A stretch of 64,000 nt of DNA from Terebella lapidaria (taxonomy: Eukaryota; Annelida; Polychaeta; Terebellida; Terebellidae), in NCBI GenBank assembly GCA_949152475.1, contig OX424568.1, positions 4,377,667 through 4,441,666 of the forward strand, read 5' to 3'. A program made the translations under genes and the position numbers. Positions 1-9,857 of the stretch are shown piece after piece. The notes beneath the pieces were generated by a model, which was not told the origin of the DNA, ran no database searches, and saw only the letters and a list, made by a program, of their open reading frames with translations. Each line of letters opens with the position of its first letter. Position 1 is the first letter of the stretch.

Positions 1-792
1 TATGGTAACAAGCCCGACCAGCCTCGAGATGTAATCGCGAGATTCTCTAAGCACAGTTCAAAGAAGGCTGTACTCCACGCCGGCAAGGAACTGAAAGGTC
101 GAGTTGAGCCAATCTACGTTAACGAGCAGTTTCCGAAAGAAATCATGCAAAGGAGAAACACCCTGCGCCCAATCCTGAAACGAGCAAAATCCCTGAAAAA
201 GCAGGCCACCCTCGTGCAGGATACCTTCTTGATAGATGGCAAACGCTTCACGATCGACAACGTCCGTAGCATTCCCTTCGATATATCTGATATCGGGACC
301 AAAACCACTGACGGCCACATCCTGTTCGGAGGTCGGTTATCTCCCTTCAGCAATTTTTATACCCGACCTGGTCTCATGACAACAGCGGATGGTATCTTCA
401 ACTCCAGTGAGCAACGCTTCCAGTTCACCAAAGCAACCGACGCTGGCGACGACTCAGCCGCTGTAGCAATAATGCTGGAGACTGATCCTCTATCCATCAA
501 GCGACTGGGAGACGCTGTTACCCCATCAAAAGACTGGGACAAGCGTGCTCCGGCGGTCCTGAAGGACTGTGTCGTAGCGAAATTCTCACAAAACGAGGAT
601 CTCAACAGCATGCTGCGAGCGGCCGGCTCCCGTTCCTTCGCCGAGTGCACGCGAGACAGGCGCTGGGGCATCGGTCTGACCATCACCGACGAGGATGCTG
701 ACAAGGAGGACAAGTGGCACGGGAAAAACGAAATGGGGAGTATACTGAACAGTGTTAGAGACGAACTGGCTTCAGTGAATGGGACAAACTAA
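1..792 (+). CDS. L1-ORF1-like RNA-binding domain fused to NADAR domain (5' partial)
   Basis: The frame is open from the first base of the window to TAA at 790-792 (263 residues), so the true start lies upstream; the ATG at 145 is internal. Residues 1-90 (PRDVIARFSKHSSKKAVL, then a KG-rich stretch and a basic RRNTLRP segment) resemble the RRM and C-terminal domain of L1-type ORF1 proteins, which bind RNA. Residues about 108-258 match the NADAR (YbiA/DUF1768) fold: GGRLSPFSNFY, SSEQRFQFTKA, RRWGIG and WHGKNEMG hit the conserved core. Known NADAR enzymes are N-glycosidases acting on ADP-ribose-linked or riboflavin-pathway substrates; some remove ADP-ribose from guanine in nucleic acid. The frame is undamaged, unlike most coding sequence here. 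Inference: an ORF1-type retroelement protein carrying a NADAR domain, or a host gene built from one. The joining of the two domains is seen directly; its function is not. Confidence 0.75.
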   Translation, partial: YGNKPDQPRDVIARFSKHSSKKAVLHAGKELKGRVEPIYVNEQFPKEIMQRRNTLRPILKRAKSLKKQATLVQDTFLIDGKRFTIDNVRSIPFDISDIGTKTTDGHILFGGRLSPFSNFYTRPGLMTTADGIFNSSEQRFQFTKATDAGDDSAAVAIMLETDPLSIKRLGDAVTPSKDWDKRAPAVLKDCVVAKFSQNEDLNSMLRAAGSRSFAECTRDRRWGIGLTITDEDADKEDKWHGKNEMGSILNSVRDELASVNGTN

Positions 793-1931: not shown

Positions 1932-2723
1932 CATATATATGGTGATTGGAGTGAGGCTGAACTCGTGTCTAATCCATGTGTCTGTAAAACTTATTCTGTG
2001 GCATATATTATTTATATTATGTTTTGAGCATTAATTGTATAATGTTAATATTTGTATGCAGGACATTACTTCATGCTCAATATACCGATTACATGTAGTA
2101 TAGATTCGTTATGCGATGCTGATCGTGTCATATTTCCATATGTAATAATTTTGTTGTTGTTGATGATGATGCTATATGGTTTGCTTGTTTGTTTGCTTGA
2201 ACTTATATTTTTTTCAAGGCAAGATGTCTAACTAAAGTATTGTACAATTTAAAATTGACTGTGCTCTTATTAAGACAGAAATCCTTTCATTAAGCTATGT
2301 CCTCTGCTGCCTATTTGTTATATTGCGTTCATAATGTCGATGTAGTGTTTTCTGAGTTTGCACTGGCATTCGTCAAGATAATGATGTATGAAAGTGATAT
2401 ATGAACACATGTAATCATCTCTAAATCCATTTTATCTTATTTAGTACCAATTAATTTATGACTGTATGGGAGGGGGGCAGGAGGTGCTTCCAATGTTATC
2501 CACCACATGAAATTTCTTGGACACCAGGAAATAAGTAGGGTTGGGGTACTCACAACCATTCTGATTTGATCGTGCTTGAATATGTCTTATGTTTTATGTC
2601 ACATTGTTGTTATTACTAAACTATGTTATGTTCCATTGAGTTACCTTGCAGAAACGTGTGTGACGTCCGGTGGGTGGGGTATTGGTGAAGGCCTGATAGA
2701 TGTTATGATGTACCACAATCATA

Positions 2724-5700
2724 ATGGCCAGTCAGGCATATGACCATTTACGGACAGGTGCCGAATACGACTTGAAATCATTACTTGACCATGTTGATGA
2801 GCAAGGTGAGGAATCATGTACTGTTAACACCCTTGCAGCTTGCAGTTACTATATGCCTGAAGATTATATTCGCGACGTTGTTAGCAATGACTCGTACATA
2901 TCATTTTTTCATTTAAACTGCCGCGGACTCTCAAGTAATTGGGAGAGTTTCAAAGAACTGATAGCAAATCTGCATTCTGATTGTTTCTCATTTGACTATA
3001 TAGGGATAAGCGAAATATATCAATCAGCTGAGTTGAGGCGCCTCGGGTTACCAGGATACCAGGATCTGATCATGAAATGCCGCCCGAATAGTCCAAAGGG
3101 AGGTATTGGTCTATACGTTAAGGACAATATCAATTATAAAATTCGTGATGATTTAAGCATCTTTATACCCCATGTTATTGAAAGCCTATTTATTGAAGTA
3201 CACCATGAAAAGACCAAAAATTGCATTATTGGAGTAATATATAGACCCAATAGCGAACCAAAGGCAGACATTGATATATTTTCATCTAACATTGATGATA
3301 TTTCGAATATTGTTAATCGAGAGAATAAAAAACTTGTTATGATGGGCGACATGAATATAGATCTATTGAAATTTGAGACACATAAAAAAACCAACGACTA
3401 CCTGGACAACTTATTCACACAAGGCCTACTCCCAAAGATCACTAAGCCCACAAGAGTCACTGCAACATCGGCAACTTTAATTGATCACATCTATACCAAT
3501 AATCTGAATACCACAAGCAAAGCAGGTATAATAATAACAGACGTCGCTGACCACTTCGGAATCTTTTATCTAGAACCTCTAAAAGTCACAAACACGCCAA
3601 CGATCACAAAACAAATCAGAATATTCTCAGAATCTAACCTAAACAAGTTCAAACAATCTCTTGCTGATACCGACTTCCAAGATTCACTAGATGAACCGTG
3701 CCCCAACATATCATACCGTTATTTCATGGATAAATTTACAGAATCATTTGATAACTCATTCCCACTCAGGACTGTCAGCACTAAATCGAAATTTACGAAA
3801 AGAGATCCATGGATAACGAGTGGTCTAATAGTGTCATCTGAACGCAAAACTAAACTTTACGTAAAGAAAATTAAAAAACCTACCCAAGCGAATATAGAGA
3901 ATTATAAGTTATACAACACGTTATACAAGAAAATACGACGAATAATGAAGTCCATATACTTCGAAAATATACTTGAAGGAAATAAGTACGATATAAAAAG
4001 AACTTGGTCAATACTGCGAACAGCCATCAATAAAACTAATAGTAAATCTGGTCTCCCTAATTATATGACCATCAATGATCAATGCGTAACAGATAAAAAA
4101 TCTATCGCCAATGCATTTAATGCTTTTTATGTCAACATAGGTATCGAAACCTCTAACAATGTCCCTAAAACAAATGTAAATTTCATGCAATATATGCCAA
4201 CTCCCCATCAAAACACTATGTTTATCACCCCTGTGGACACCATAGATGTCGAAAATACAGCGCGGAATATGAAGCCAAAAACTAGCGCGGGGCATGACAA
4301 TGTATCCACAAAAATATTAAAATTTTCAATCTCAACAATAATAGGACCCATTACGCACATAATAAATCGATCATTGGTGACCGGGGTTGTCCCTACAGAA
4401 ATGAAAATTGCAAAAGTTATTCCTATACATAAGGCATCAGACAAAAACTTATTGAAAAACTACAGACCGATTAGTTTATTACCAGCTTTCTCAAAACTAC
4501 TAGAAAAAATAATGTGCAAAAAACTTCTCAGTTTCCTGGAACGCAATAACATCTTATATAAATACCAATTCGGCTTCCGACCTAGGCACTCTACAATCCA
4601 CCCTATTATACACCTACTAAATCATTGTGCCAAAGCAACACAACTTGACAATCCTGAATATACACTAGCTGTTTTCTGTGACCTGTCAAAAGCATTTGAC
4701 GTCATTGATCATGAAATACTGATGAAAAAATTATAAATATATGGAATTCGCGGGGTGGCCAATGACTGGTTTCGCAGTTATTTAACAAATCGAACTCAAT
4801 ATGTCAATTACGATGATGCAAATTCTGATCTCGCCGACATACGCTGTGGTGTCCCCCAGGGGTCTATCCTAGGGCCTATCTTGTATCTTATTTATGTGAA
4901 TGACATAGGCAAATCATCTAATGCAAACATTTTGTCCTTTGCCGATGACACGACACTGTTTTCCTCCCACCGAGACCTATTTACCCTGCACTCAACAATA
5001 AACGGTGAATTAAATGGCCTATACCAATGGTTCTGCTCTAATAAACTCTCACTCAATGCCAATAAAACCAAATATATCGTAATTCGTCCAAAGCAAATGA
5101 AGGGGAACATGAGTGAACATGCAATATCAATCGGTAATACTGTATTGAACCGTATAGGAAACGACTGCGAGGAAAAATCGGCTAAATTCCTGGGTATTTA
5201 TATCGACGAATTTTTATCTTGGCAACAACATATATTGAATATTAATAAGAAAATATCGCGCGCATTGTTTGCAATCAATCAAGCAAAACATGTCCTTCCT
5301 CGAAATTGTCTCCAAACACTTTATTTCTCATTAGTGCATTCACACCTGTCGTACGGCCTACTTGCATGGGGCAATGCGCCCAGATCATATTTCTCACGTA
5401 CAGAGATACTTCAAAAACGGGCAATCAGGATCATAACTAAATCAAAATACAACAGTCACACCGATCCACTGTTCAAACGTAATTGTATTCTAAAAGTATC
5501 TGATTTATATGAATATCAGATTGTATTATTCGTGTTTGATCAAATATCGGGCCATCTCCCGGAGTCATTTTCTACAATGTTCAACCTTAACCGAAATATT
5601 CAGAACACTTATACTACGAGACAATCCGAATTGATGTATATACCAGTAACAAATAGGCAATTTTCACGCAATCTTCCAGTATTTCACTTCCCCGTTATAT

Positions 5701-5846
5701 GGAACAAATGGGCAGTCCATTTAAGTAGTAGATCTATAGAACGTAAACCGGCCGTGAAGAAAACATTGAAATCAATAATAATAAACACATATCTGGCACA
5801 GGTTACGTGTTCAAGATCCGGGTGTCCTGATTGCTCGCGGCGCTGA
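2724..5846 (+). pseudogene. LINE ORF2 (APE endonuclease + reverse transcriptase), one in-frame stop
   Basis: A single frame of 1,041 codons runs from ATG 2724 (in-frame TGA upstream at 2706) to TGA at 5844-5846. It is broken only by TAA at 4734-4736, just after SKAFDVIDHEILMKKL. Residues about 58-285 form an APE-type endonuclease, with FHLNCRGL, GDMNIDLL, LIDHIYTN and DVADHFGIF. Reverse transcriptase motifs follow: AKVIPIHK near residue 560, NYRPISLLP, GFRPRHST near 616, DLSKAFD near 652, GVPQGSILGP near 709 and the catalytic FADDT near 739. The C-terminus ends with a Cys cluster (CSRSGCPDCS). This order is typical of CR1/Jockey-group LINEs, which insert by target-primed reverse transcription. 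With one stop in over 3 kb, the copy is young. The exact clade is uncertain. Confidence 0.93.
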
Positions 5847-5950
5847 GCATACAAACTCCACTGCTGGGCATATAGAGTATCTATCCTCTTGATACCGCTC
5901 ACTCAATGATGAAAGCTATTGCTGCTTATCAACTCACAGCTCTGGTCAGT

Positions 5951-7791
5951 TTTTAGGTTACCGGACCTATGGTCCGATAACCTATTGGCATGGCGTTGCG
6001 TCCGTCGTCCGTCGTCGTCCGTCGTCGTCCGTCGTCGTCGTCGTCCACATTTTTATCTTTTTTGTTTACGGGCGAATTCTTCTGAAATTTTGCACAAAAA
6101 TACTTAAAAATATTTCAAGAAGGAGGTATTTTTTAGTTTTTTGATTTTCGCATTTGTTTCAAAATGGCGGCCGTTTTCGACGAAAAATGCCTGATTTTGG
6201 ACTTTGGTGGCCATTTTCTCAAAATCTGTTCAGTAACTTTTTTTCTTTTTGATACATAACACTCCTGATATGTACTCCTATGATGACTATAAATTTTGTT
6301 GCGCTTGAATCGCTCGAAGTGGACCATTTTGGCCCAAACTCGGCCCAAATGGGACTTTCCCATGTTAAATTCTCCTATGCTTTATAATGGGATATATTAT
6401 GCCTAATATCTCACTTAATATTGAGATTAGAGACTAGGAATCAATTGTGGACATATAGGAAATGATATATGCTGAATATTCTCGTGACCTTGAATTTGAC
6501 CTCTGACCTCAATTTCAAGGTCAGAGCACAAAATGGCTGATATCTCGCTTATTATCGACTCTACAGCTTAGGAATCAATTGTGGACATATAGGAAATGAT
6601 ATATGCTGAATATTCTGATGACCTTGAATTTGACCTTTGATCCCATTTTCAAGGTCATAGGACAAAATGACTAATATCTCGCTTGTTATCGACTTTACAG
6701 CTTAGGAATCAGTTATCAACATATAGGAAATGATATATGCAGATTATTGTCATGACCTTGAATTTGACCTTTGACCTCATTTTCAAGGTCACAGGACAAA
6801 ATGGCTAATATATCACTTATTATCGACTCTGCAGCTTAGGAATCAATTGTGGACATATAGGAAATGATATATGCTGAATATTCTGATGACCTTGAATTTG
6901 ACCTTTGACCCCATTTTCAAGGTCATAGGGCAAAATGACTAATATCTCGCTTGTTATCGACTTTACAGCTTAGGAATCAGTTATCAACATATAGGAAATG
7001 ATATATGCAGATTATTGTCATGACCTTGAATTTGACCTTTGACTTCATTTTCAAGGTCACAGGACAAAATGGCTAATATCTCACTTATTATCGACTCTAC
7101 AGCTTAGGAATCAATTGTGGACATATAGGAAATGATATATGCTGAATATTCTGATGACCTTGAATTTAACCTTTGACGGCATTTTCAAGGTCATAGGACA
7201 AAATGGCTAATATCTCGCTTGTTATCGACTTCACAGCTTAGGAATCAGTTATGAACATATAGGAAATGATATATGCAGATTATTGTCATGACCTTGAATT
7301 TGACCTTTCACCTCATTTTTAAGGTCACAGGACAAAATGGCTAATATCTCACTTATTATCGATTTTACAGCTTAGGAATCAATTGTGGACATGTAGGAAA
7401 TGATATATGCTGAATATTCTCGGACCTTGAATTTGACCTCTGACCTCATTCTCAAGGTCCAAGGACAAACTGGCTCATATCTTGCTCCTCTATTGACTGT
7501 ATGGCTTGGGAATCAATTGTGGACATGATATAGAAAATGATATACACTGAATATTTTGATGACCTTGAATTTGACCTTTGCCCCTTCATTTTCAAGGCCA
7601 CAGCACAAAATTGCTAATATCTCGCTGATTATTGAATTTACAGCTTAGCAATCAACTGTCGACATGATATATGCTTAATGTTATATATGCTGAATATTCT
7701 CTTGACCTTGAATTCAACCAGTGACCTGGCTAACATCTAAAATATTAAACATTGTCCGGTAACCTATCTTTGGCCCTTGGCCTAATTTTTT
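5951..7791 (+). mobile_element. H element copy A (HINE/Helentron-like, non-autonomous)
   Basis: Starts in TTTTT then AGGTTACCGGACC, whose first 27 bases fold on themselves (GGTTACCGGACC with GGTCCGATAACC). A GTCGTC-rich stretch and a conserved non-coding head follow (TGAAATTTTGCAC, CAAAATGGCGGCCG), then eight to nine 134-bp units. It ends with GTCCGGTAACC, the inverse of the start, and a small hairpin (TTGGCCCTTGGCCTAA) followed by T-runs. Asymmetric subterminal inverted repeats, a tandem core, a 3' hairpin and T-rich insertion sites match HINE/DINE-1 elements. No replicase or transposase is encoded. The class assignment is an inference. Confidence 0.7.
6425..7480. repeat. 134-bp tandem array with 268-bp higher-order period
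   Basis: The word GGAATCAATTGTGG or its variant GGAATCAGTTAT recurs with its TC at 6441, 6575, 6709, 6843, 6977, 7111, 7245 and 7379, an exact 134-bp step. From 6575 onward the two variants alternate (TGTGGACATATAGG with GCTGAATATTC; TATCAACATATAGG with GCAGATTATTG), giving 268-bp dimers. Each unit holds TGACCTTGAATTTGACC, TTTGACCTTTGACCTCA and TTTTCAAGGTCA, that is, clustered nuclear-receptor half-sites. Confidence 0.95.
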
Positions 7792-8097
7792 AATAATGCA
7801 CGGGATATTGGTTTTCCTCCATATTTCAGTGTGGATATACAGAACTATTCTTTTTTCAAAATCCTTTTCTACACATTGTATATGAGCAACTACATATCAG
7901 TATCGAATTCCCTAATACCACTCACTCATGAGTGGAAATATTCACTACAAGAACTCGTTTCGGCGACCTGTCCGTCCGGCCGATCTGTACCTTATAGTAT
8001 TTTTACGATCATGAAATTATTTTGACAATGGCCTCCTCCCATCGTCATCCCGCCGGGCGCACACGCAAACTGCATGATTTATCAAGGCATATTTTCC
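7792..8097 (+). other. Spacer between H copies, possibly LINE 3' UTR
   Basis: About 300 bases unlike the H elements. It contains TACCACTCACTCATG, resembling TACCGCTCACTCAATG at 5893-5908 just after the LINE ORF, which suggests it belongs to the LINE 3' UTR or a partial duplicate of it. No coding potential. Confidence 0.4.
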
Positions 8098-9651
8098 TTT
8101 TTAGGTTACCGGACCTATGGTCCGATAACCTATTGGCATGGCGTTGCGTCCGTCGTCTGTCGTCCGTCGTCGTCCACATTTTTATCTTTTTTGTTTATGA
8201 GCGAATTCTTCTGAAATTTTGCACAAAAATACTTAAAAATAATTCAGGAAGGAGGTATTTTTTAGTTTTTTGATTTTCGCATTTTTTTCAAAATGGCGGC
8301 CGTTTTCGACGAAAAATGCCAGATTTTGGACTTTGGTGGCCATTTTCTCAAAATCTGTTCAGTAACTTTTTTTCTTTTTGATACATAACACTCCTCATAT
8401 GTACTTCTATGATGTCTACAAATTTCATTGCGCTTGAATCGCTCGAAGTGGGCCATTTTGGCCCAAACTCGGCCCAAATGGGACTTTCCCATGTTAAATT
8501 CTCCTATGCTTTATAATGGGACACATTATGCCTAATATCTCACTTAATATTGAGATTAGAGACTAGGAATCAATTGTGGACATATAGGAAATGATATATG
8601 CTGAATATCCTCGTGACCTTGAATTTGACCTCTGACCTCAATTCAAGGTCAGAGCTTAAAATGGCTGATATCTCGCTTATTATCGACTCTACCGCTTAGG
8701 AATCAATTGTGGACATATAGGAAATGATATATGCTGAATATTTTGATGACCTTGAATTTGACCTTTGACCCCATTTTCAAGGTCATAGGACAAAATGGCT
8801 AATATCTCGCTTGTTATCGACTTTACAGCTTAGGAATCAGTTATGAACATATAGGAAATGATATATGCAGATTATTGTCATGACCTTGAATTTGACCTTT
8901 GACCTCATTTTCAAGGTCACAGGACAAAATGGCTAATATCTCACTTATTATCGACTCTACAGCTTAGGAATCAATTGTGGACATATAGGAAATGATATAT
9001 GCTGAATATTCTGATGACCTTGAATTTGACATTTGACCGCATTTTCAAGGTCATAGGACAAAATGGCTAATATCTCGCTTGTTATCGACTTTACAGCTTA
9101 GGAATCAGTTATGAACATATAGGAAATGATATATGCAGATTATTGTCATGACCTTGAATTTGACCTGTGACTTCATTTTCAAGGTCACAGGACAAAATGT
9201 CTAATATCTCACTTATTATCGATTTTACAGCTTAGGAATCAATTGTGGACATGTAGGAAATGATATATGCTGAATATTCTCGGACCTTGAATTTGACCTC
9301 TGACCTCATTCTCAAGGTCCAAGGACAAACTGACTCATATCTTGCTCCTCTATTGACTGTATGGCTTGGGAATCAATTGAGGACATGATATAGAAAATGA
9401 TATACACTGAATATTTTGATGACCTTGAATTTGACCTTTGCCCCTTCATTTTCAAGGCCACAGCACAAAATTGCTAATATCTCGCTGATTATTGAATTTA
9501 CAGCTTAGCAATCAACTGTGGACATGATATATGCTTAATGTTATATATGCTGAATATTCTCTTGACCTTGAATTCAACCAGTGTGACCCGGCTAACATCT
9601 AAAATATTAAACATTGTCCGGTAACCTATCTTCGGCCCTTGGCCTAATTTT
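8098..9651 (+). mobile_element. H element copy B
   Basis: Same head, core and tail as copy A in the same orientation, with about two fewer 134-bp units (array about 8555-9300). The non-array parts are nearly identical to copy A, including the unusual last units (CTGTATGGCTTGGGAATCA). Copy B therefore probably arose by local tandem duplication rather than independent insertion. Confidence 0.75.
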
Positions 9652-9857
9652 TCTCAGGGGCCAGTGGGAAGACAGTAATATATTACTACACTGGTCCCAC
9701 GATTCACATACTAATTCGTAATCTAATCCCTATCTGTAAGGCCATCTGACCTAATGATTTTCGATGTCTATCTATATATCTGATGTCTTTAATTCTTGAT
9801 ATGTATTATAATGTGAATTGTGAATAAACTATCACTATCACATCACTATCACCAATT
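9652..9857 (+). other. Probable LINE distal 3' UTR and tail
   Basis: Contains a palindrome AGTAATATATTACT between CCAGTG and CACTGG arms, a Thr-free AT-rich run, GTGAATAAACT and a terminal imperfect repeat of ATCACTATC. The tail resembles the short-repeat 3' ends of CR1-group LINEs. Confidence 0.5.

What the first reader, a model, noticed from the sequence alone, without database searches (positions are those of the whole stretch)
1..792. Fusion of an L1-ORF1-like RNA-binding domain with a NADAR domain
One intact frame joins a retroelement-type RNA chaperone domain to a domain known to act on ADP-ribose-linked substrates, including ADP-ribosylated guanine in nucleic acid. If it belongs to a mobile element, the element may carry its own countermeasure to host ADP-ribosylation; if host-owned, it may be a domesticated ORF1 used in nucleic-acid repair or defence. 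The undamaged frame contrasts with the decayed coding sequence around it.
Basis: partly seen in the sequence, partly recalled or inferred. Interest (0 to 1): 0.8.

Follow-up and report, generated by a model that had tools for sequence, protein, structure and literature searches.

The report
Retrotransposon ORF1 proteins carrying NADAR domains
The reading frame is the end of a jumping gene's RNA-packaging protein fused to an enzyme-type domain that can remove ADP-ribose marks from nucleic acid, and in this animal genome the fusion recurs in many retrotransposon copies with unrelated replication enzymes.

Summary
In detail: 1-792 is one open frame, the last 263 of 423 residues of a LINE ORF1 protein (coiled coil, L1-type RRM, CTD, then NADAR). 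It is almost certainly not a domesticated host gene. Capped searches of the 762-Mb source genome give 261 distinct loci matching the ORF1 or NADAR queries. The window copy belongs to a LINE running from about 836 bases before the window to about 9843, with an endonuclease/RT frame at 2709-5846 (one in-frame stop) and two nested repeats; a second near-identical copy has the same layout.

NADAR in LINE ORF1 is already in print for oyster Tx1 LINEs (PMC12477816), so the fusion itself is not new. What I did not find in print is its spread: the module sits upstream of three RT lineages, one of L1/Tx1 type (B) and two of another type (A, the window's, and C). Related ORF1s carry UPF0029 in the same C-terminal slot, and a young Penelope-like element carries its own NADAR.

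The catalytic residues are kept in lineages A and C; three of six B representatives lack the catalytic lysine. Most likely function: an ADP-ribosyl-guanine hydrolase carried in the retrotransposon RNP. This is inferred, not shown.

The parts
1..315 (+). 3' part of ORF1 coding for the end of the L1-type RRM and the C-terminal (CTD) domain; the first 160 residues (coiled coil, start of RRM) lie upstream of the window
   Evidence: boundary to NADAR from the alignments
319..789 (+). NADAR domain (Pfam match nt 340-768); catalytic residues E137, K144, E215, with D219 and W222 (residues counted from window base 1)
   Evidence: residue roles from PMC11543638 section 12
790..792 (+). ORF1 stop codon
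793..2708 (+). inter-ORF spacer of the same LINE, shared with the second copy on C6
1671..1928 (.). 118-bp tandem duplication and (AC)n run inside the spacer
2709..5846 (+). ORF2 frame (first ATG at 2724): endonuclease plus reverse transcriptase, type A; one in-frame stop at 4734-4736 in this copy
5955..7785 (.). nested repeat inserted in the LINE 3' region, with 134-bp tandem units
7786..8102 (+). LINE 3' region, continued
8103..9647 (.). second nested copy of the same repeat
9648..9843 (+). 3' end of the LINE with AATAAA and a short-unit tail without a poly-A run

Best explanation
The frame is the C-terminal part of the ORF1 protein of a non-LTR retrotransposon (LINE). By homology, ORF1p coats the element's RNA through a coiled coil, an L1-type RRM and a CTD, as type II ORF1s do. 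The fused NADAR domain most likely works as an ADP-ribosyl-guanine hydrolase held in the RNP, removing ADP-ribose from guanine in the element's RNA, its cDNA or the target site, so that reverse transcription is not blocked. Shown here: domain order, multicopy mobile-element context, linkage to ORF2, conserved catalytic residues in lineages A and C, purifying selection. Inferred: catalytic activity, substrate, benefit to the element, and a host enzyme as the source of the mark. The module is shared by LINEs with two kinds of RT, best explained by exchange of ORF1 between elements (inferred).
For: NADAR E=3.6e-29. Equivalents of P. nicotianae E43, K50, E125: 50 of 50, 47 of 50 and 48 of 48 aligned copies; D130 and W133 equivalents 48 of 48 each (roles). 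In 21 diverse representatives, E, E, D and W are kept in 21 of 21 and K in 11 of 11 A, 4 of 4 C and 3 of 6 B. L1 ORF1p structures matched by profile, E=1.1e-10. ORF2 copies that reach the ORF2 start and have an ORF1/NADAR locus on the same strand within 6 kb upstream: A 16 of 60, B 20 of 29, C 13 of 36; wrong strand or downstream 0, 1 and 0; chance about 0.001 per copy. Median pairwise dN/dS 0.27 for NADAR and 0.27 for RRM-CTD in 205 pairs with NADAR dS 1.2-3. B ORF2 (L043) matches human L1 ORF2p at 7e-85 from endonuclease through RT; A ORF2 (L046) only in the RT core at 5.9e-16; the window piece has no L1 match at E up to 0.1. RRM-CTD profiles of A and B match at 1.3e-42.
Against: No activity is shown. 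Three of six B representatives have Leu, Arg or Gln in place of the catalytic Lys (L047, L048, L050); PMC11543638 finds this Lys essential, with Arg active in vitro only, so part of lineage B may be inactive. In lineage A the ligand-contacting R79 is Asp in 10 of 11 and R93 is Arg in 1 of 11 representatives, so substrate or rate may differ. dS is saturated in 953 of 1225 pairs, and 12 of the 13 pairs at dS 0.6-1.2 are one comparison. The NADAR-only tree does not recover the ORF1 NADARs as one clade (one clade not rejected, p-AU 0.405). The fold prediction failed (pLDDT 33).
Confidence: 0.45

Rival explanations
1. NADAR in ORF1p is a binding rather than cleaving module: it recognises ADP-ribose on modified proteins or nucleic acid and steers the RNP, for example to DNA breaks.
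For: Contacts to the pyrophosphate are mostly replaced in lineage A (R79 is Asp in 10 of 11) and the catalytic Lys is lost in 3 of 6 B representatives, while both distal-ribose glutamates are kept in 21 of 21.
Against: Lineages A and C keep all three catalytic residues E, K and E in 15 of 15 representatives, which binding alone need not require.
Confidence: 0.28
2. NADAR is a counter-defence: the host ADP-ribosylates retroelement nucleic acid, and retroelements captured an eraser. This narrows the best explanation rather than excluding it.
For: NADAR occurs in LINEs with two kinds of RT, in a Penelope-like element and, in print, in Ectocarpus Gypsy (PMC12477816). NADARs reverse guanine ADP-ribosylation and act as antitoxins (PMC11543638, PMC11125620).
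Against: I looked for no host enzyme that ADP-ribosylates retroelement nucleic acid. The Penelope-like NADAR lacks the catalytic Glu by eye (sequence). Recurrent capture also fits a housekeeping role.
Confidence: 0.2
3. The fusion is a domesticated host gene derived from a LINE ORF1.
For: The ORF1 frame is intact while ORF2 carries a stop in this copy.
Against: A second copy, 98-99% identical and with matching 5' and 3' ends, lies on another contig; 261 loci match the queries; ORF2 follows on the same strand.
Confidence: 0.02

Closest known systems
Tx1 LINE ORF1 proteins of Crassostrea gigas with YbiA-family NADAR (PMC12477816; passages read)
   Same: LINE ORF1 with NADAR; lineage B here has an L1/Tx1-type ORF2
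   Different: The window element's ORF2 is not of L1/Tx1 type; the passages I read report no spread over other LINE RT types
Type II ORF1 (coiled coil, RRM, CTD) of L1, CR1, L2 and R1 clades (PMC4120745; passages and section 13 read)
   Same: Same N-terminal architecture; the paper proposes ORF1 shuffling between elements
   Different: An added C-terminal NADAR or UPF0029 domain; a find for words starting with ADP gave 0 in that paper
YbiA-type NADAR hydrolases (PMC11543638, passages and section 12 read; PDB 8bau, 2b3w)
   Same: Same domain; catalytic E, K, E plus D and W in the window copy
   Different: Fused to a retroelement RNA-binding protein; R79 and R93 contacts mostly replaced, and the Lys lost in half of the B representatives
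Gypsy Pol NADAR of Ectocarpus (PMC12477816; passages read)
   Same: NADAR carried by a retroelement
   Different: LTR element; the domain is N-terminal in Pol, not in a LINE ORF1
Esterase-type ORF1s of CR1/L2 LINEs (PMC4120745, section 13; PMC3905857 seen in a search listing only)
   Same: Enzyme domain in a LINE accessory protein; the B element L043 has an SGNH frame between ORF1 and ORF2
   Different: Different enzyme

Membership tests
NADAR (PF08719), YbiA family | Pfam NADAR match above the curated cut-off | tested here: met
   102.6 bits against 35.1; 21 of 21 ORF1 NADARs scanned match
NADAR (PF08719), YbiA family | catalytic Glu in the last strand (YbiA) rather than Asp or His | tested here: met
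   E215 in the window; Glu in 48 of 48 aligned copies; definition from PMC11543638 and PMC11125620
NADAR (PF08719), YbiA family | catalytic Lys (K95 of E. coli C7, K50 of P. nicotianae) | tested here: met
   met in the window copy, in 11 of 11 A and 4 of 4 C representatives; not met in 3 of 6 B representatives
NADAR (PF08719), YbiA family | guanine ADP-ribosyl hydrolase activity | not testable with these tools
   needs an assay
Type II LINE ORF1 | coiled coil, RRM and CTD in that order | tested here: met
   profile of 12 relatives matches L1 ORF1p structures, E=1.1e-10; heptad score reached by 7 of 500 shuffles. Transposase_22 on the single protein stays below the curated cut-off, 19.9 against 22.4
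Non-LTR retrotransposon (LINE) | ORF2 with AP-type endonuclease and RT downstream on the same strand | tested here: met
   Exo_endo_phos and RVT_1 in 2709-5846; same layout in the C6 copy
Non-LTR retrotransposon (LINE) | target-site duplication | tested here: inconclusive
   no convincing duplication at the ends of the two copies examined
Tx1/L1 type (window element) | ORF2 matching L1 ORF2p across endonuclease and RT | tested here: not met
   no L1 match for the first 675 residues of the window ORF2 at E up to 0.1; RT core only for the A relative L046. The B element L043 does match, 7e-85
Jockey superfamily (CR1/L2-like) for the window element | RT groups with CR1/L2/Jockey reference elements | not tested
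   no reference LINE set was at hand; the label is recalled from RT motifs. A and C are related over about 950 aa (5e-80), B matches them only in the RT core

The most novel reading that the evidence does not exclude
In animals, reversible guanine ADP-ribosylation of retroelement RNA or cDNA is a restriction system, and retroelements of at least three kinds (L1-type LINEs, CR1/L2-type LINEs and Penelope-like elements) have captured or exchanged NADAR erasers as counter-defence, with the ORF1 C-terminus acting as a slot for interchangeable enzymes (NADAR, UPF0029).
Probability: 0.17. Interest if true: 0.88.

Novelty: new variant of a known kind. Interest (0 to 1): 0.62.

Why it matters
PMC11125620 states that the roles of NADARs in eukaryotes are unclear (passage). 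Finding the domain in ORF1 of LINEs with two kinds of RT, and separately in a Penelope-like element, gives a concrete setting to test: does an ADP-ribose eraser raise retrotransposition, and against which host modification? It also suggests that an ORF1 module moves between distant LINEs, and that its C-terminal slot holds different enzymes.

Tried and rejected
Domestication was rejected (see rivals). One NADAR capture for all ORF1s could not be shown: the NADAR-only tree of 35 rows (21 ORF1 NADARs, two ORF1 remnants, one Penelope-like row, 11 others) has unresolved deep forks; p-AU 0.405 for ORF1 alone and 0.271 with the Penelope-like row added. The RRM-CTD tree of 28 rows recovers B, C and the UPF0029 group as clades but puts the UPF0029 rows beside some A rows on a long branch, so I draw no direction of exchange. 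In both trees many A, B and C labels are by ORF1 clade, because I did not read the RT behind each row. Row L054 conflicts: its RRM-CTD sits beside B and C (99/95), its NADAR beside an A row (88/66), its ORF2 is type A; it is a long branch.

A viral-contig scan with the window NADAR found no relative; phages and plasmids do hold NADARs at 28-44% identity in the rows listed. Rows dropped before counts: 18 of 51 ORF1s before the tree (near-identical or truncated), RT rows that do not reach the ORF2 start (7 of 67 A, 8 of 37 B, 4 of 40 C) and 5 of 93 rows that are further pieces of loci already listed. The 261 loci come from capped lists, and include fragments and some places matched only by the ORF1 query or only by the NADAR family; the list ends at 119 bits and so leaves out the Penelope-like copies.

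Full report
What is there. Bases 1-792 hold one open frame of 263 residues ending in a stop at 790-792. The window is part of contig C15 of an unnamed 762-Mb genome, an animal by its LINEs and base make-up (inference). The frame continues upstream; from its first ATG, 480 bases before the window, the protein has 423 residues: coiled-coil region, L1-type RRM, CTD, NADAR. NADAR is certain (E=3.6e-29; 21 of 21 ORF1 NADARs scanned match Pfam). The L1-ORF1 part is weak from the window alone (E=0.057), better with the full protein (E=9.7e-4, below the curated cut-off) and clear with a profile of 12 relatives (LINE-1 ORF1p structures at E=1.1e-10).

The element. A second copy on contig C6 shares the sequence from about 836 bases before the window to window 5954, then 7786-8102 and 9648-9843, at 98-99% identity. 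The two copies start at about the same base and end in AATAAA plus a short-unit tail. Between lie ORF1, a 1.9-kb spacer with a duplicated 118-bp unit and an (AC)n run, and ORF2 at 2709-5846 with endonuclease and RT, interrupted in this copy by one in-frame stop at 4734-4736; the C6 copy's ORF2 also carries a stop. Two copies of another repeat with 134-bp tandem units are nested near the 3' end. No convincing target-site duplication was seen.

Copy number. The window protein gives 146 rows, a B-type ORF1 93 rows, and the NADAR family 150 scored of 973 candidates, 150 of 150 above cut-off. After five secondary pieces were left out, 384 rows merged into 261 distinct loci. The searches score only the best candidates; some loci are fragments, and some are matched by one query only.

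Three RT lineages. Besides the two near-identical copies I read the sequence downstream of 12 ORF1 loci. Five have an ORF2 like the window's (A: L045, L046, L068, L071, and a remnant in L072), three an L1/Tx1-type ORF2 (B: L042, L043, L044), three a third type (C: L067, L069, L070), and in one (L073) none was recognised. B (L043) matches human L1 ORF2p from endonuclease through RT at 7e-85. A (L046) matches L1 only in the RT core at 5.9e-16, the first 675 residues of the window ORF2 not at all at E up to 0.1, and C (L069) in the RT core at 1.2e-17, about as well as R2. A and C are related over about 950 residues (5e-80, 27% identity); B matches either only over a few hundred residues of RT. 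C frames L069 and L070 carry a 2A-like NPGP motif near the start, absent from L046 and L043.

Linkage. Of ORF2 copies that reach the ORF2 start (query start at most 62 of 675, 7 of 1262 and 52 of 1161), 16 of 60 A, 20 of 29 B and 13 of 36 C have an ORF1/NADAR locus on the same strand within 6 kb upstream. The wrong-strand or downstream control gives 0, 1 and 0, and chance expects about 0.001 per copy. The locus lists are capped, so these fractions are lower bounds; ORF2 copies without a partner may have lost ORF1, carry another ORF1, or have one outside the lists. The names CR1/L2, Jockey and Tx1 and the meaning of 2A in LINEs are recalled; no reference LINE set was at hand.

ORF1 relationships. 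In a tree of 33 ORF1s, the three rows with a read B-type ORF2 fall in a starred clade of six, and four rows with an A-type ORF2 in a starred group of 22. RRM-CTD profiles of A and B match at 1.3e-42. PMC4120745 (section 13 read) proposes that a 5'-truncated LINE landing between ORF1 and ORF2 of another makes hybrids. The long, variable gaps between the ORF1 and RT matches (343-5462 bases) would fit, but I show association, not the event.

A slot for enzymes. A search with the RRM-CTD part alone (150 rows) led me to six regions that were not in my NADAR lists. Frames in four of them match UPF0029 (IMPACT/YigZ type by recall) where NADAR would be, E=1.1e-15 to 6.6e-25 (L088, L089, L090, L092); L093 resembles L089 and the ORF1 of L091 is a shortened relative of L090 by eye. 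Their RRM-CTD profile matches the NADAR-bearing one at 1.2e-28. L091 is followed by an endonuclease with a 2A motif, most like type C. No paper in the library holds both UPF0029 and retrotransposon. In L043 an SGNH-hydrolase frame (Pfam E=1.1e-13) lies between ORF1 and ORF2.

A Penelope-like element with NADAR. L083 holds a 574-residue frame with NADAR (E=6e-16), followed by RT (2.5e-11) and GIY-YIG (2.1e-4, 22.0 bits against a cut-off of 22.6), the layout of a Penelope-like element (recalled). The genome search scored 76 of 1292 candidates; all 76 are 98-100% identical, 74 of 76 without internal stops, and several stand in tandem at about 4.9-kb spacing. Its catalytic-Glu position is not Glu by eye (sequence). 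Two papers hold both Penelope-like and NADAR; in the passages of PMC12477816 that I read the two are not linked, and PMC6679389 was seen in listings only.

Active site and selection. By the numbering of PMC11543638 section 12, the window keeps the E43, K50, K75, W89, E125, D130 and W133 equivalents. Over 50 ORF1 copies, near-identical ones included: E 50 of 50, K50 47 of 50, K75 47 of 50, W89, E125, D130 and W133 48 of 48 aligned each; R79 is Asp in 38 of 50, R93 Ala in 41 of 47 aligned. In 21 diverse representatives the exceptions at K50 are Leu, Arg and Gln in three of six B rows; A (11) and C (4) have none. One of these (L047, Leu) stands for the B family with many near-identical copies, so recent activity there does not depend on this Lys. 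Median pairwise dN/dS is 0.27 for NADAR and 0.27 for RRM-CTD in 205 pairs with NADAR dS 1.2-3; 953 of 1225 pairs are saturated; near-identical pairs (22 with dS under 0.05) give 0.19 and 0.69. The domain is kept as well as the RNA-binding part.

What is known. PMC12477816 (passages read) reports YbiA-type NADAR in ORF1 of several oyster Tx1 LINE families and in Ectocarpus Gypsy Pol, and suggests RNA processing. Searches for NADAR with ORF1 and Tx1 (one paper, that one), NADAR domain with transposable element (one, the same) and NADAR with retrotransposon (104 papers, 20 listed, many apparently author names) showed me no other report. The fusion is therefore known in kind. The sharing across RT types, the UPF0029 counterpart and the Penelope-like carrier are what I did not find in print.

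Mechanism. Best reading: ORF1p carries an ADP-ribosyl-guanine hydrolase into the RNP and clears ADP-ribose from guanine in RNA, cDNA or target DNA. Domain, conservation and context are shown; activity, substrate and benefit are inferred.

Noticed in passing
L083:2275-6277 (G000 C6) and 76 scored genome copies: A young, partly tandem Penelope-like element carries its own NADAR domain in a 574-aa frame upstream of RT and GIY-YIG.
   Followed up: partly
L088, L089, L090, L092: LINE-type ORF1s with a C-terminal UPF0029 domain in place of NADAR.
   Followed up: partly
L043:63-719: SGNH-hydrolase frame between a NADAR-ORF1 and an L1/Tx1-type ORF2.
   Followed up: partly
L069, L070, L091 (start of ORF2): 2A-like NPGP motif near the start of ORF2, after a hydrophobic stretch.
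   Followed up: no
L047, L048, L050: Catalytic Lys of NADAR replaced by Leu, Arg or Gln in part of lineage B.
   Followed up: partly
window 5955-7785 and 8103-9647: Two nested copies of one repeat with 134-bp tandem units and a GGTTACCGGACC-type end, inserted in the LINE 3' region.
   Followed up: partly
L054 with L068 (G000 C4:12903006): An ORF1 whose RRM-CTD groups with lineages B and C but whose ORF2 is type A: a possible further ORF1-ORF2 mismatch.
   Followed up: partly
L083:1-2059 and 5206-7270: A repeated unit (97% identical) holding an antisense C-type NADAR-ORF1 stretch beside the Penelope-like element.
   Followed up: no
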